Origin: Chitinophagaceae bacterium
GTDB taxonomy: Bacteria > Bacteroidota > Bacteroidia > Chitinophagales > Chitinophagaceae
Length of the DNA stretch: 49,589 nt
Assembly (NCBI GenBank): GCA_021299175.1
Contig: JAJTFY010000001.1
Span: 1 to 49,589, forward strand
Reading direction: 5' to 3'
The translations under genes were made by a program, and so were the position numbers. This document shows positions 27,306 through 33,241 of the stretch, one piece after another; position 1 is the first letter of the stretch; every line of letters begins with the position of its first letter. A model generated the notes under the pieces. It did not search any database. It had not been told where the DNA came from and saw only the letters and a program-made list of their open reading frames with translations.

Positions 27306-29393
27306 ATGACAAGCAACAACGAACATACCCGTTTTTACCAAGACAAAAGCAAGGAGCTTGAAGCACGTGCAACCGATCTAGGCTACTTGACAGAAAACAT
27401 CAGCCTGCTCAGGGATGTCATCCGGTTTCATGAGAACCGTTATTATGTGATGAATGATCCGTTGATCTCTGACACCGAGTTTGACATACTCTACAAGGCA
27501 CTTGAAAGGACCGAGGCCGCGAATCCACTGCTGATTACCGCAGACTCTCCCACCCAGCGTGTTGGACCTGGCATCACCAAACAATTCAAGACTGTTCAGC
27601 ACCTGGTACCCATGCTATCGTTGGAAAATTCTTATGATGCTGCAGATTTGATGGAGTGGGACCGCAAGGCAAGGGAACTCTCAGGGTTGGAGCAGCTTGA
27701 TTACTGTGTTGAACCAAAATTTGACGGCGCCAGCATTTCGCTGGTATATGAGAACGACCTGTTCGCCCGTGGTGCAACAAGGGGTGATGGCGTTGAAGGG
27801 GAAGACATCACGCTGAACCTCAAACAGATCAAGTCGATTCCACTCTCTGCAGCTTTTTCCAAATATGGGATTCAGCAAGCAGAGATCCGTGGTGAGGTAT
27901 TGATGAACAAGAACAGTTTTCAACAATTCAATGAGCAACTGCTGGAACAAAATCTCCCTCCCTTGGCCAATCCGCGCAACGCTGCATCCGGATCGCTGCG
28001 GCTGAAAGATGCCAGGCTGGTGGGCAAAAGAAACCTGGAAGCCTTTATCTACCATATTGCCTATCTGAATTTTACGCCCAAACACGTAGAAATTCCATCC
28101 CATGCCAAAAGCCTAGAAATGCTGTGGGACCTTGGTTTCAGGAGCCCTGTTCATGAGAAAAAAGTATTTAAGGGTATTCAAGGCGTGATTGATTTCTGCA
28201 AAGAATTTGAGGAGAAAAGGGATGGATTGCCCTACGAAATAGACGGGCTCGTCATCAAGGTGAATGAGCTGGCCTTGCAAGAAAAACTGGGCATGACCAC
28301 CCATCACCCCAGATGGGCCATTGCCTTTAAATTCAAGGCAAGGCAGTCTACCAGCAAGCTTTTCCAGGTGGAATATCAGGTGGGAAGAACCGGCAGTGTA
28401 ACGCCCGTTGCCAAAATACAGCCCGTACCGATTGGTGGTGTTACCGTTGCCTCCATCTCCTTGCACAACCAGGATTTCATCAGGGAAAAAGACATCCGCA
28501 TTGGTGATACTTTGTTGGTAGAACGCGCTGGCGATGTCATCCCCTATATTGTAAAATCATTCCCCGAACTCAGGGATGGCAGCGAAACAGAGATTGCATT
28601 TCCCGCTGCCTGCCCGGTCTGTCAAACTGCACTTGTCAAAACAGAAGAGGAGGCGGTTTGGAGATGCCCCAACGAGCGCTGCGATGCACAGGTGGTGGAA
28701 AGGATGATCCATTTCACCAGCAAAGATGCCATGGACATCCGTGGGTTGGGCGATGCCATCATCAGAAAATTCCATGAGATGGGTTGGCTGAAAGACATTC
28801 CCTCCATTTATCAGCTGCCATTGGAAGAGCTGAAAAAGATGGAGGGCTTTGGTGCAAAATCTGTCGCCAACATCAGCGAAGCCATAGAAAAATCTAAAAC
28901 GCAACCTTTATACAGGCTGATCAATGCATTGGGCATTCGCTTCGTTGGTGAAACAACTGCCAAAACCCTTGCCCAATCCATATCGCATTTGCTTGATCTG
29001 GTCAGTATGGACAAAGAGGCATTGCAGAAAATTGAAGATGTAGGCGTGAAAGTGGCAGAGAGCATCCACCAGTATTTCAGCAATCCTGACAATATTGAGA
29101 TGTTGAAAAGACTGGAAGCTGAAGGGCTGCAGCTAAACAGCATCAAACAACAACCTGTTGATGGCAACCTCAAAGGAAAGAGCTTCCTCTTCACCGGCAC
29201 ATTGTATAAAATGAAGCGTTCGGAAGCGGAAGCCCTTGTGGAAGCCAACGGAGGAAAAATACTTTCCGGCGTAAGCTCAAAACTCGATTACCTGATCGTT
29301 GGGGAAGATGCAGGATCCAAGCTGGAAAAAGCAAAGAAGATCGCCTCCATCCAGATCCTGGATGAAGACGGCTTCATTAAATTAATTCACTAG
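27306..29393 (+). CDS. ligA: NAD-dependent DNA ligase LigA
   Basis: The full-length 695-residue ligase has domain Ia, then the adenylation domain with the active-site Lys in CVEPKFDGAS (K138). The OB fold, a four-Cys zinc finger (CPVCQTALV..WRCPNERCDAQ), tandem helix-hairpin-helix repeats (MEGFGAKSVANI, IEDVGVKVAESI) and a C-terminal BRCT domain (LKGKSFLFTGTLYKMKRSEAEALVEANGGK) follow. It seals nicks in replication and repair using NAD+. It overlaps the converging asd gene by 17 bases at their 3' ends. Confidence 0.97.
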   Translation: MTSNNEHTRFYQDKSKELEARATDLGYLTENISLLRDVIRFHENRYYVMNDPLISDTEFDILYKALERTEAANPLLITADSPTQRVGPGITKQFKTVQHLVPMLSLENSYDAADLMEWDRKARELSGLEQLDYCVEPKFDGASISLVYENDLFARGATRGDGVEGEDITLNLKQIKSIPLSAAFSKYGIQQAEIRGEVLMNKNSFQQFNEQLLEQNLPPLANPRNAASGSLRLKDARLVGKRNLEAFIYHIAYLNFTPKHVEIPSHAKSLEMLWDLGFRSPVHEKKVFKGIQGVIDFCKEFEEKRDGLPYEIDGLVIKVNELALQEKLGMTTHHPRWAIAFKFKARQSTSKLFQVEYQVGRTGSVTPVAKIQPVPIGGVTVASISLHNQDFIREKDIRIGDTLLVERAGDVIPYIVKSFPELRDGSETEIAFPAACPVCQTALVKTEEEAVWRCPNERCDAQVVERMIHFTSKDAMDIRGLGDAIIRKFHEMGWLKDIPSIYQLPLEELKKMEGFGAKSVANISEAIEKSKTQPLYRLINALGIRFVGETTAKTLAQSISHLLDLVSMDKEALQKIEDVGVKVAESIHQYFSNPDNIEMLKRLEAEGLQLNSIKQQPVDGNLKGKSFLFTGTLYKMKRSEAEALVEANGGKILSGVSSKLDYLIVGEDAGSKLEKAKKIASIQILDEDGFIKLIH

Positions 29394-30366
29394 CCAATAA
29401 ATATTCTGCAATCTGCACAGCGTTGGTTGCAGCTCCTTTGCGGAGGTTATCACTCACGATCCACATGTTGAGTGTCTTGGGCTGGGTTTCATCGCGGCGA
29501 ATCCTTCCAACAAAAACCTCATCTTTTTCATGTGCATCCATGGGCATGGGATATTGCTGGGTTGCAGGATCATCCACCACAATGATGCCAGGCGAGTCAG
29601 CCAAAATGCGCTTCACTTCGTCCAGTTCAAACTCTTCTTCAAACTCAATATTTACGCTCTCGCTGTGACCACCCATGACCGGAATCCTCACAGTTGTTGA
29701 GGTTACACGGATGCTGTCGTCGCGCATGATTTTTTTCGTTTCCAGAACCATCTTCATTTCTTCCTTGGTGTATCCATTGTCAAGGAATACATCTATCTGC
29801 GGAATCACATTGAGGTCAATCGGATATTTATATGCCATCTCCCCTTCAATGCCATTTCTTTCATTCATCAATTGTGTAACGGCTTTCACACCAGTGCCGG
29901 TAACACTTTGGTAAGTGCTTACCACAATTCTTTTGCTCTTGTAGCGCTTGTGCAATGGTGCAAGGGCAACCACCATTTGAATGGTTGAACAGTTGGGATT
30001 GGCGATGATCTTGTCTTCGGCAGTCAAGTCATCGGCATTGATTTCAGGAACCACCAATTTCTTGGTAGGATCCATTCTCCACGCAGAAGAGTTATCAATT
30101 ACAGTAATGCCCGCTGCAGCAAAAGCCGGAGCCCACTCAGTGGAGGTTCCGCCACCTGCAGAGAACAATGCTACAGCAGGTTTAAGGTCGATGGCATCCT
30201 GCATGCCCACCACTTTATACTGTTTCCCTTTGAACGTCACTTCTTTGCCCACAGATCTTTCTGAGGCCACGGGAATGAGTTCGGTAACAGGGAAGTTTCT
30301 CTCTTCAAGAACCTGTAACATTTTGGTGCCCACCAAGCCGGTTGCACCTACTACTGCAACTTTCAT
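29377..30366 (-). CDS. asd: Aspartate-semialdehyde dehydrogenase
   Basis: The 329-residue enzyme has an N-terminal NADP fold (MKVAVVGATGLVGTKMLQVL), the catalytic Cys in NPNCSTIQM, VSTYQSVTGTG, and the C-terminal RIPVMGGHSESVNIEFEEEF with the active-site His. It reduces aspartyl phosphate to aspartate semialdehyde, the branch point to lysine/diaminopimelate, threonine and methionine. ATG 30366 is the true start; the track's GTG at 30444 would read through a terminator hairpin. It is preceded by a Lys-rich leader ORF and an attenuator. No other biosynthesis gene is in the operon. Confidence 0.97.
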   Translation of the reverse strand: MKVAVVGATGLVGTKMLQVLEERNFPVTELIPVASERSVGKEVTFKGKQYKVVGMQDAIDLKPAVALFSAGGGTSTEWAPAFAAAGITVIDNSSAWRMDPTKKLVVPEINADDLTAEDKIIANPNCSTIQMVVALAPLHKRYKSKRIVVSTYQSVTGTGVKAVTQLMNERNGIEGEMAYKYPIDLNVIPQIDVFLDNGYTKEEMKMVLETKKIMRDDSIRVTSTTVRIPVMGGHSESVNIEFEEEFELDEVKRILADSPGIIVVDDPATQQYPMPMDAHEKDEVFVGRIRRDETQPKTLNMWIVSDNLRKGAATNAVQIAEYLLASELI

Positions 30367-30397: not shown

Positions 30398-30427
30398 AAA
30401 AAAAAGCCTCCCAAATCTGGAAGGCTG
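30398..30427 (-). terminator. asd: Attenuator terminator in the asd leader
   Basis: The minus-strand stem AGCCTTCC / GGGAGGCT (eight pairs, one G-U) has a six-base loop and is followed at once by a run of T. It lies between the leader ORF and the asd start codon, so it must be bypassed for asd to be expressed. Its left arm can pair instead with GGAAGGTT at the end of the leader ORF. Confidence 0.85.
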
Positions 30428-30453
30428 TTACTTATTTGATACACAAAGCAGAA

Positions 30454-30510
30454 CTAACCTTCCCGCAGGGACTGTTTCTTGCTCTTTTTTGTGTGTTTAT
30501 TTTGTTTCAT
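30454..30510 (-). CDS. Lys-rich leader peptide of asd
   Basis: This 18-codon ORF is too short for the track: MKQNKHTKKSKKQSLREG, with six Lys and one Thr. It begins about five bases after the predicted transcription start and ends 27 bases before the terminator stem. Its last codons (GAA GGT plus the first base of TAG) form the antiterminator arm GGAAGGUU. Codons 6-8 (ACACAAA) can pair with UUUGUGU after the stop. The arrangement fits ribosome-mediated attenuation sensing charged lysyl-tRNA. Lys and Thr are end products of the asd pathway. Chance is possible in A-rich DNA, but the combined layout is strong. Confidence 0.7.
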   Translation of the reverse strand: MKQNKHTKKSKKQSLREG

Positions 30511-30520
30511 GATGCGGATG

Positions 30521-30552
30521 TAAAGCTAATCATGAAAGATTTTTCTGCCAAA
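30521..30552 (-). promoter_or_regulatory. Promoter of the asd leader transcript
   Basis: On the minus strand, TTTG (30552-30549), 20 bases, then TAGCTTTA (30528-30521; seven of eight to TAnnTTTG). The predicted start is near 30515, five bases before the leader-peptide ATG. Confidence 0.5.
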
Positions 30553-32317: not shown

Positions 32318-33241
32318 TCAGATGATATTGATGTCAAAATTCACCAGGTCAACAAACTGTTTGATCCTTGCATTGATGTCTTCTTTTGAAATCTCTCTCA
32401 TCCTTGTGGTGCCAAATTTCTCAACACAGAATGATGCCATGGCTGAGCCAATGATGATGGCTGTTTTCATGTTTTCAAAAGAGATGTCTTTTGTTTTGGC
32501 AATATGTCCAACAAAACCGCCGGCAAACGTATCGCCTGCTCCGGTTGGATCAAACACTTCTTCCAAGGGAAGGGCAGGAGCGAAGAATACCTGGTCTTCA
32601 TGGAACAACAAAGCACCATGCTCACCTTTTTTTACCACCAAATATTTGGGACCCATGGCAAGGATTTCCTTGGCTGCTTTCACCAATGAATACTGGGCAC
32701 TCAATTGCCTTGCCTCGCTGTCATTGACCATCAAAACATCCACATCTTTCAGGAGCAATTCAAGGTCATCCATGGCCGTTTCCATCCAGAAATTCATGGT
32801 ATCCATGATCACGAGCTTGGGCTTGTTCTTCATTTGCTTCAGGACACTGTGTTGCACAGCAGGAACACCATTGCCCAACATGACAAATTCACAATCCTGG
32901 TAACTGTCTGGGACCACTGGGGTGAAATTGGCCAGCACATTCAACTGGGTATCCAGCGTATCACGCTCGTTCATGTCCATATGGTAACGACCTGACCAAA
33001 AGAATGATTTTTCATCCTTCTTGATCTGCACCCCTTCGAGGTGAACACCAATGCTGGCCAGGTGATCCAGTTCCTCCTGCGGAAAATCGCCACCCACAAC
33101 AGAAATCTGCTTGATGGGCGTCACGAAATTGGCAGCACTCAGGGCAATATAGGTTGCCGCTCCACCGATGATGCGGTCACTTTTTCCAAAAGGCGTTTCA
33201 ATGGCATCAAAGGCCATGGTTCCTACAACAAGCAATGACAT
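32318..33241 (-). CDS. PfkB-family sugar/nucleoside kinase
   Basis: The 307-residue ribokinase-like protein has the N-terminal glycine signature (IIGGAATYIALSAANF), the mid-section LVIMDTMNFWM and the C-terminal PfkB motif DPTGAGDTFAGGFVGHIA with the catalytic Asp. It would phosphorylate a sugar, nucleoside or similar alcohol with ATP. The substrate cannot be assigned from sequence alone. It is a single gene with its own promoter. Confidence 0.9.
   Translation of the reverse strand: MSLLVVGTMAFDAIETPFGKSDRIIGGAATYIALSAANFVTPIKQISVVGGDFPQEELDHLASIGVHLEGVQIKKDEKSFFWSGRYHMDMNERDTLDTQLNVLANFTPVVPDSYQDCEFVMLGNGVPAVQHSVLKQMKNKPKLVIMDTMNFWMETAMDDLELLLKDVDVLMVNDSEARQLSAQYSLVKAAKEILAMGPKYLVVKKGEHGALLFHEDQVFFAPALPLEEVFDPTGAGDTFAGGFVGHIAKTKDISFENMKTAIIIGSAMASFCVEKFGTTRMREISKEDINARIKQFVDLVNFDINII

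What the first reader, a model, noticed from the sequence alone, without database searches (positions are those of the whole stretch)
30398..30552. Complete lysine-type attenuator with leader peptide upstream of asd
Seen in sequence (minus strand): near-consensus promoter TTTG-N20-TAGCTTTA; an ORF of 18 codons, MKQNKHTKKSKKQSLREG, starting about 5 bases downstream; and three mutually exclusive pairings. Pairing A is ACACAAA (30494-30488, in the codons) with UUUGUGU (30447-30441). Pairing B is GGAAGGUU (30463-30456, end of the ORF) with AGCCUUCC (30427-30420). Pairing C is the same AGCCUUCC with GGGAGGCU followed by U7-8, a terminator. A ribosome stalled on the Lys codons would block A and free B, preventing C; a ribosome reaching the stop would cover the B arm and allow C. 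This is classic amino-acid attenuation logic placed on a gene of the Lys/Thr/Met pathway. Lysine-responsive control is usually by riboswitch, so a Lys leader peptide on asd in Bacteroidota would be new to my knowledge.
Basis: partly seen in the sequence, partly recalled or inferred. Interest (0 to 1): 0.9.

Follow-up and report, generated by a model that had tools for sequence, protein, structure and literature searches.

The report
Lysine-sensing leader-peptide switch before asd
Just before asd, a gene for an early shared step towards lysine, this bacterium carries a short lysine-rich mini-gene and a switchable RNA terminator that should let asd be made only when lysine runs low; the same device recurs in dozens of related genera and also sits before dapA, so it looks like a previously undescribed lysine version of the classic attenuation switch.

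Summary
In 68 asd leaders, gathered without regard to Lys content, the peptide keeps four Lys columns (55-61 of 68) with free AAA/AAG turnover. The stop codon always lies at the antiterminator strand. The codon:post-stop stem pairs better with its own partner than with swapped ones (60/68), and terminator and antiterminator covary. In ribosome-masking folds the antiterminator forms when the A site is on the Lys stretch and vanishes near the stop.

Codon identity follows the downstream pathway. The same Lys leader stands before dapA. Weaker model hits show the same layout with His codons before hisG, Trp before trpE, Asn before asnB and Thr/Ile before thrA. No lysine riboswitch passes the Rfam cut-off in 61 relatives.

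The element is near-universal in the window's family and patchy in at least four other Bacteroidia families. It works like ribosome-mediated attenuation (trp/his/thr class) with Lys as the likely signal. No description of a Lys-type attenuator was found; the nearest is a suggested Thr/Lys leader in Sinorhizobium. All evidence is sequence-based; no transcript was measured.

The parts
30549..30552 (-). -33 promoter element TTTG
   Evidence: Bacteroidota-type TTTG-N20-TAnnTTTG; 62/68 homologous leaders score 9-10 of 10 against about 2% of shuffles
30521..30528 (-). -7 promoter element TAGCTTTA (TAGCTTTG in close relatives)
30454..30510 (-). leader peptide ORF MKQNKHTKKSKKQSLREG* (7 Lys codons)
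   Evidence: four conserved Lys columns with AAA/AAG turnover
30488..30494 (-). strand 1 (lower stem of the 1:2 hairpin), in the His-Thr-Lys codons
30461..30471 (-). upper stem-loop of the 1:2 hairpin (UCCC-UGC-GGGA), overlapping the antiterminator strand
30456..30463 (-). strand 2: antiterminator left arm GGAAGGUU
30441..30447 (-). strand 1' UUUGUGU, pairs with the codons
30419..30426 (-). strand 3: AGCCUUCC, shared by antiterminator and terminator
30398..30412 (-). strand 4 GGGAGGCU and U run: intrinsic terminator 3' arm
29377..30366 (-). asd, aspartate-semialdehyde dehydrogenase (329 aa), the regulated gene

Best explanation
A ribosome-mediated transcription attenuator that reads charged lysyl-tRNA and controls asd. 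RNA polymerase starts a few bases before the leader ORF. When lysine is plentiful, the ribosome runs through the Lys codons to the stop, covers GGAAGG (strand 2), and the AGCCUUCC:GGGAGGCU-U8 terminator ends transcription before asd. When lysyl-tRNA is short, the ribosome stalls on the KHTKKSKK stretch and breaks the codon:post-stop hairpin. Strand 2 then pairs with AGCCUUCC (antiterminator), and asd is transcribed. Shown by sequence and comparison: all elements, their conservation, mutual exclusivity in silico, and agreement of codons with pathway. Inferred: leader translation, stalling, termination and the response to lysine. Which state forms with no ribosome is unclear from the folds.
For: 68 asd leaders: Lys at columns 5, 8, 12 and 13 in 61, 61, 55 and 60; third-base turnover AAA/AAG 34/27 (column 8) and 15/40 (column 12); Lys 27.7% against 12% in the other frames and 15% expected from composition; stop at -6 to +15 nt of strand 2 in all. 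Own codon:post-stop stem better than swapped partners in 60/68. Terminator 98.5% paired with 6 of 8 pairs changed on both sides; antiterminator 90% paired, 4 of 8. Masking folds: antiterminator on with the A site in the Lys window, near 0 from ten codons on and 0.01 at the stop. Same leader before dapA and a Lys/Met leader before an aspartokinase. Codons follow the gene: hisG His 33%, trpE Trp, asnB Asn, thrA Thr/Ile. Lysine riboswitch 0/61 over cut-off, with working controls.
Against: No transcript, peptide or lysine-response data. Equilibrium folding still favours the terminator for most stall positions (mean 0.50-0.76), so the switch must be kinetic, as in other attenuators. With no ribosome, the truncated leader already forms much of the antiterminator (0.86 on a scale reaching 1.3). 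Thr is frequent at one column (51/68), so a joint Lys/Thr signal is not excluded. Six of 54 family members lack the element.
Confidence: 0.9

Rival explanations
1. Multivalent aspartate-family attenuator: stalling at Lys, Thr (and Ile/Met) codons all induce asd, as thrL reads Thr and Ile.
For: Thr at column 7 in 51/68 and often at column 11 (25/68); L014 and L035 are Thr/Ile-rich; asd feeds Lys, Thr, Met and Ile.
Against: Thr in the leaders (10.2%) is not above the other reading frames (6-12%) and sits in the CATACA stem strand. Thr is 1.2% in asd leaders of other families, while Lys stays at 30%. Some dapA leaders lack it (IKKYSSKKN).
Confidence: 0.2
2. The short ORF is a by-product of an A-rich RNA structure; regulation is by a protein or small-molecule riboswitch.
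For: The region is A-rich (48% A in the ORFs) and structured.
Against: Lys codons keep positions 1-2 with free third bases; the stop position is fixed relative to strand 2; codons change to His, Trp, Asn or Thr with the gene while the layout stays. No Rfam family matches.
Confidence: 0.04
3. The leader senses general slowing of translation by Lys-rich nascent chains or A-tracts rather than lysyl-tRNA charging.
For: Lys/AAA runs are known to slow ribosomes (general knowledge).
Against: Genes behind Lys leaders are lysine-pathway genes, and sister leaders use other amino acids matched to their own pathways.
Confidence: 0.05

Closest known systems
Ribosome-mediated amino-acid attenuators (trp, his, thr, ilv, leu, phe leaders, mainly of Proteobacteria; general knowledge, cf. 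Vitreschak et al. 2004 as cited in PMC10117765)
   Same: Short leader ORF rich in codons of the pathway product, 1:2, 2:3 and 3:4 pairings, intrinsic terminator, stop codon placed so that a finished ribosome blocks strand 2.
   Different: Lysine codons, on asd and dapA, in Bacteroidota, with a Bacteroidota-type promoter. From general knowledge, lysine control by RNA is otherwise by the L-box riboswitch or T-boxes.
Sinorhizobium meliloti SEP5 (PMC10117765)
   Same: Translated small ORF with Thr (6) and Lys (3) codons in the 5' UTR of a gene the authors call aspartate dehydrogenase; suggested leader peptide.
   Different: Mostly Thr, Sinorhizobium only, no alternative stems or covariation reported in the passage read; different phylum.
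Leader-peptide attenuation clues in Flavobacterium psychrophilum (PMC9723704)
   Same: Same phylum; strong clues for leader-peptide attenuation before amino-acid biosynthesis operons, and structured 5' elements before genes such as pheA and hisG.
   Different: No Lys leader and no asd or dapA named in the section read.
Lysine riboswitch RF00168
   Same: Lysine-dependent control before lysine-pathway genes in other phyla (general knowledge).
   Different: Absent here: 0 of 61 relatives over cut-off. The present element reads codons, not the free amino acid.
E. coli asd (Haziza, Stragier & Patte 1982; only its title seen, in a reference list)
   Same: Same gene, searched for attenuation early.
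   [quoted passage not shown] coli asd.

Membership tests
Ribosome-mediated (leader-peptide) transcription attenuator | Short ORF with a run of codons for the end product | tested here: met
   7 Lys of 18 in the window; at least 3 in all asd leaders compared
Ribosome-mediated (leader-peptide) transcription attenuator | Mutually exclusive antiterminator and terminator, conserved with covariation | tested here: met
Ribosome-mediated (leader-peptide) transcription attenuator | Codon region pairs so that a stalled ribosome frees strand 2 | tested here: met
Ribosome-mediated (leader-peptide) transcription attenuator | Stop codon placed so that a terminating ribosome masks strand 2 | tested here: met
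   -6 to +15 nt in 68/68
Ribosome-mediated (leader-peptide) transcription attenuator | Downstream gene in the pathway of the sensed amino acid | tested here: met
   asd, dapA and an aspartokinase
Ribosome-mediated (leader-peptide) transcription attenuator | Readthrough rises on starvation for that amino acid, and depends on the codons | not testable with these tools
   needs RNA or reporter data
Ribosome-mediated (leader-peptide) transcription attenuator | Leader ORF is translated | tested here: inconclusive
   codon-level conservation implies it; no ribosome profiling available
Lysine riboswitch RF00168 | Match to the covariance model | tested here: not met
   no match in the window; 0/61 relatives over cut-off, controls positive
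Any other Rfam RNA family | Score above the gathering cut-off | tested here: not met

The most novel reading that the evidence does not exclude
Bacteroidia share one attenuator scaffold that has been re-coded for different amino acids (Lys, His, Trp, Asn, Thr/Ile) by swapping codons while keeping the CATACA:TGTATG-type stem; the Lys form stands in for the missing lysine riboswitch and moves between asd, dapA and lysC. Common descent of the Lys and His leaders was not tested.
Probability: 0.35. Interest if true: 0.75.

Novelty: new variant of a known kind. Interest (0 to 1): 0.62.

Why it matters
It adds lysine, which to my knowledge is otherwise handled by riboswitches or T-boxes, to the amino acids read by leader-peptide attenuation, in a large phylum whose regulation is little known. 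It gives a conserved, testable lysine sensor for Bacteroidota. The matching His, Trp, Asn and Thr leaders provide a natural codon-swap series in which pairing and codon sensing can be separated.

Tried and rejected
First family and locus searches failed from a frame error of mine. RNAalifold on the MAFFT alignment finds only the terminator, because spacer lengths vary and the codon stem is misaligned; I therefore tested that stem with own-versus-swapped partners. Thr as a co-signal was considered and not favoured. Own-genome dapA was checked for a second Lys leader: none; there and in most relatives dapA closely follows an upstream reading frame (it looks like accA; not tested). Weak model hits L218, L227, L231, L246 and L247 lie by tails of other genes or plain terminators and were rejected. 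Literature searches gave no Lys attenuator; hits with 'Lys codons' in Caulobacter and Salmonella papers were unrelated.

Full report
CHECK OF THE OBSERVATION. The minus strand from 30552 to 30398 carries what was described: a TTTG-N20-TAGCTTTA promoter, an 18-codon ORF MKQNKHTKKSKKQSLREG* at 30510-30454, the codon:post-stop pairing 30494-30488: 30447-30441, the GGAAGGUU strand 30463-30456, and a terminator with arms 30426-30419 and 30412-30405 followed by a U run to 30398. The AGCCUUCC arm is one base off in the finding. The gene that follows (ATG 30366) is asd. The two pairings A and B do not share bases as listed; the fold of the whole leader shows a longer hairpin (UCCC:GGGA and AAC:GUU above the lower stem) that does use the B arm, and this makes the alternatives exclusive. 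The leader folds 3.4 standard deviations better than shuffles. The same RNA begun at 30472, as if the codons before it were covered, folds instead into the antiterminator.

CONSERVATION. asd homologues were collected by protein similarity only (80 named loci; 101 genomes of relatives), and their upstream regions read out. A terminator, an upstream strand complementary to its 5' arm, and an ORF ending near that strand were searched without using Lys content. This gave 68 leaders. In the window's own family 48 of 54 readable asd genes have one: 47 of the 68, plus L122, which was read by eye and is not in the statistics. Six lack it (G001, G015, G041, G047, G052, G055) and one upstream region is masked. 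Named carriers include Niastella, Sediminibacterium, Limnovirga, Flavihumibacter and Filimonas; most of these genera are listed under Chitinophagaceae in the NCBI taxonomy, and that the unnamed family f1 is Chitinophagaceae is inferred. The asd genes of Mucilaginibacter, Pedobacter, Flavobacterium, Dyadobacter and other Bacteroidota in the set lack it.

CODONS. Aligned peptides show Lys in columns 5, 8, 12 and 13 in 61, 61, 55 and 60 of 68. The third base turns over (AAA/AAG 34/27 in column 8, 15/40 in column 12) while the first two are kept, which points to selection on the codon rather than the base. Lys makes up 27.7% of residues against 12% in the other two frames and 15% expected from composition. 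His-Thr (columns 6-7) lie in the stem strand CATACA and vary more. The stop codon is always -6 to +15 nt from the start of the antiterminator strand.

PAIRING. The codon:post-stop stem has lower energy with its own partner than with partners from other species in 60/68, and than shuffles in 66/68; examples such as L087 (ACACCAAA:UUUGGUGU) and L106 change both sides. The terminator keeps 98.5% of pairs with two-sided changes in six of eight; the antiterminator keeps 90% with two-sided changes in four of eight, above all or nearly all shuffles. In L015 all three strands have changed together, to GGGGC/GCCCC/GGGGC.

SWITCH SIMULATION. For each leader a ribosome footprint (-15 to +14 of the P site) was made unpairable at every codon. 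Before the 3' terminator arm is made, the antiterminator forms fully when the A site lies 0 to 7 codons from the first conserved Lys, where the Lys codons are, falls at 8-9, and is 0.01 with the A site at the stop. At equilibrium the terminator still wins often (0.50-0.76 in the main Lys window), so the switch depends on timing. Without a ribosome the result is intermediate (0.86 on the same scale), so the uncoupled state is left open.

SPECIFICITY. A covariance model of the leaders hits 172 of 249 family genomes (this counts hits before any gene). Second hits with high scores stand before dapA, the first lysine-specific gene, with leaders such as MQLIKKHTKQVKKHSMYGEG* (identity by TIGR00674). 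Of the 30 best-matching dapA genes of the family, four have the leader; in most others, and in the window's own genome, dapA closely follows another reading frame. Weaker hits of the same model show the same layout before other genes with matching codons: hisG (MFKKAHTHHHHFLFNG*), trpE (MKTLTLNNNWWHSISFPG*; in the window's own genome MNRNYTNNGWHFISDKG*), an aspartokinase (MQIKKHNKMMKCITRR*), asnB (MKTQTHNNNRFFALASR*) and a thrA-like aspartokinase (MTINNTTIITIITTGKYFGGK*) (asnB and the thrA-like gene are named from their N-terminal sequence only). His is 33% of hisG leaders and Lys 7.6%; in asd leaders Lys is 28-30%. Outside the family, asd of at least four further Bacteroidia families has Lys leaders without the His-Thr pair, e.g. 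MMIKKIKCAKKLFR*. These were found with the Lys-trained model, so their Lys content is partly selected; the His, Trp, Asn and Thr hits show that the model does not require Lys.

ALTERNATIVES. No Rfam family matches the window, and the lysine riboswitch is absent over its cut-off in 61 relatives while it is found in four control genomes. A joint Lys/Thr signal is possible but less likely.

PRIOR WORK. Open-access full-text searches gave no lysine leader-peptide attenuator. The nearest is SEP5 of Sinorhizobium meliloti, a translated ORF with six Thr and three Lys codons suggested as a leader peptide (PMC10117765). Attenuation clues before amino-acid operons are noted for Flavobacterium psychrophilum (PMC9723704). 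[quoted passage not shown] coli asd (seen in a reference list). Most subscription papers are not in that library, so novelty is 'not found', not 'proven'.

VERDICT. A real, conserved ribosome-mediated attenuator by anatomy, whose most likely signal is lysyl-tRNA: a new variant of a known kind. The lysine response itself has not been measured.

Noticed in passing
window's own genome G000:C16:345-455 (L182), outside the window: Same attenuator layout before trpE with leader MNRNYTNNGWHFISDKG* and a CCCCG terminator: a Trp attenuator in the same genome.
   Followed up: partly
L219-L223, L228, L229, L241: His-run leader peptides (e.g. MFKKAHTHHHHFLFNG*) before hisG in relatives, with a CATACA stem strand like that of the Lys leaders; possible common origin.
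   Followed up: partly
L248 (G450): Leader MKTQTHNNNRFFALASR* with three Asn codons, stem and terminator before a gene that looks like asparagine synthase (asnB): possible Asn attenuator, unfamiliar to me.
   Followed up: no
L249 (G597): Thr/Ile-rich leader MTINNTTIITIITTGKYFGGK* before a thrA-like aspartokinase in a Bacteroidia genome.
   Followed up: no
L242-L245 (family f58): asd leaders combining Lys with Met (CMKRKMKKP, SKKCMKKP); might also read Met.
   Followed up: no
L027, L050; window 32318-33241: In other genomes the PfkB-type kinase found 2 kb away in this window appears to lie directly upstream of asd, with no leader there.
   Followed up: no
G001, G015, G041, G047, G052, G055 (L091, L098, L146, L119, L150, L134): Six family members have asd without the leader; whether lysine control was lost or moved elsewhere is open.
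   Followed up: no
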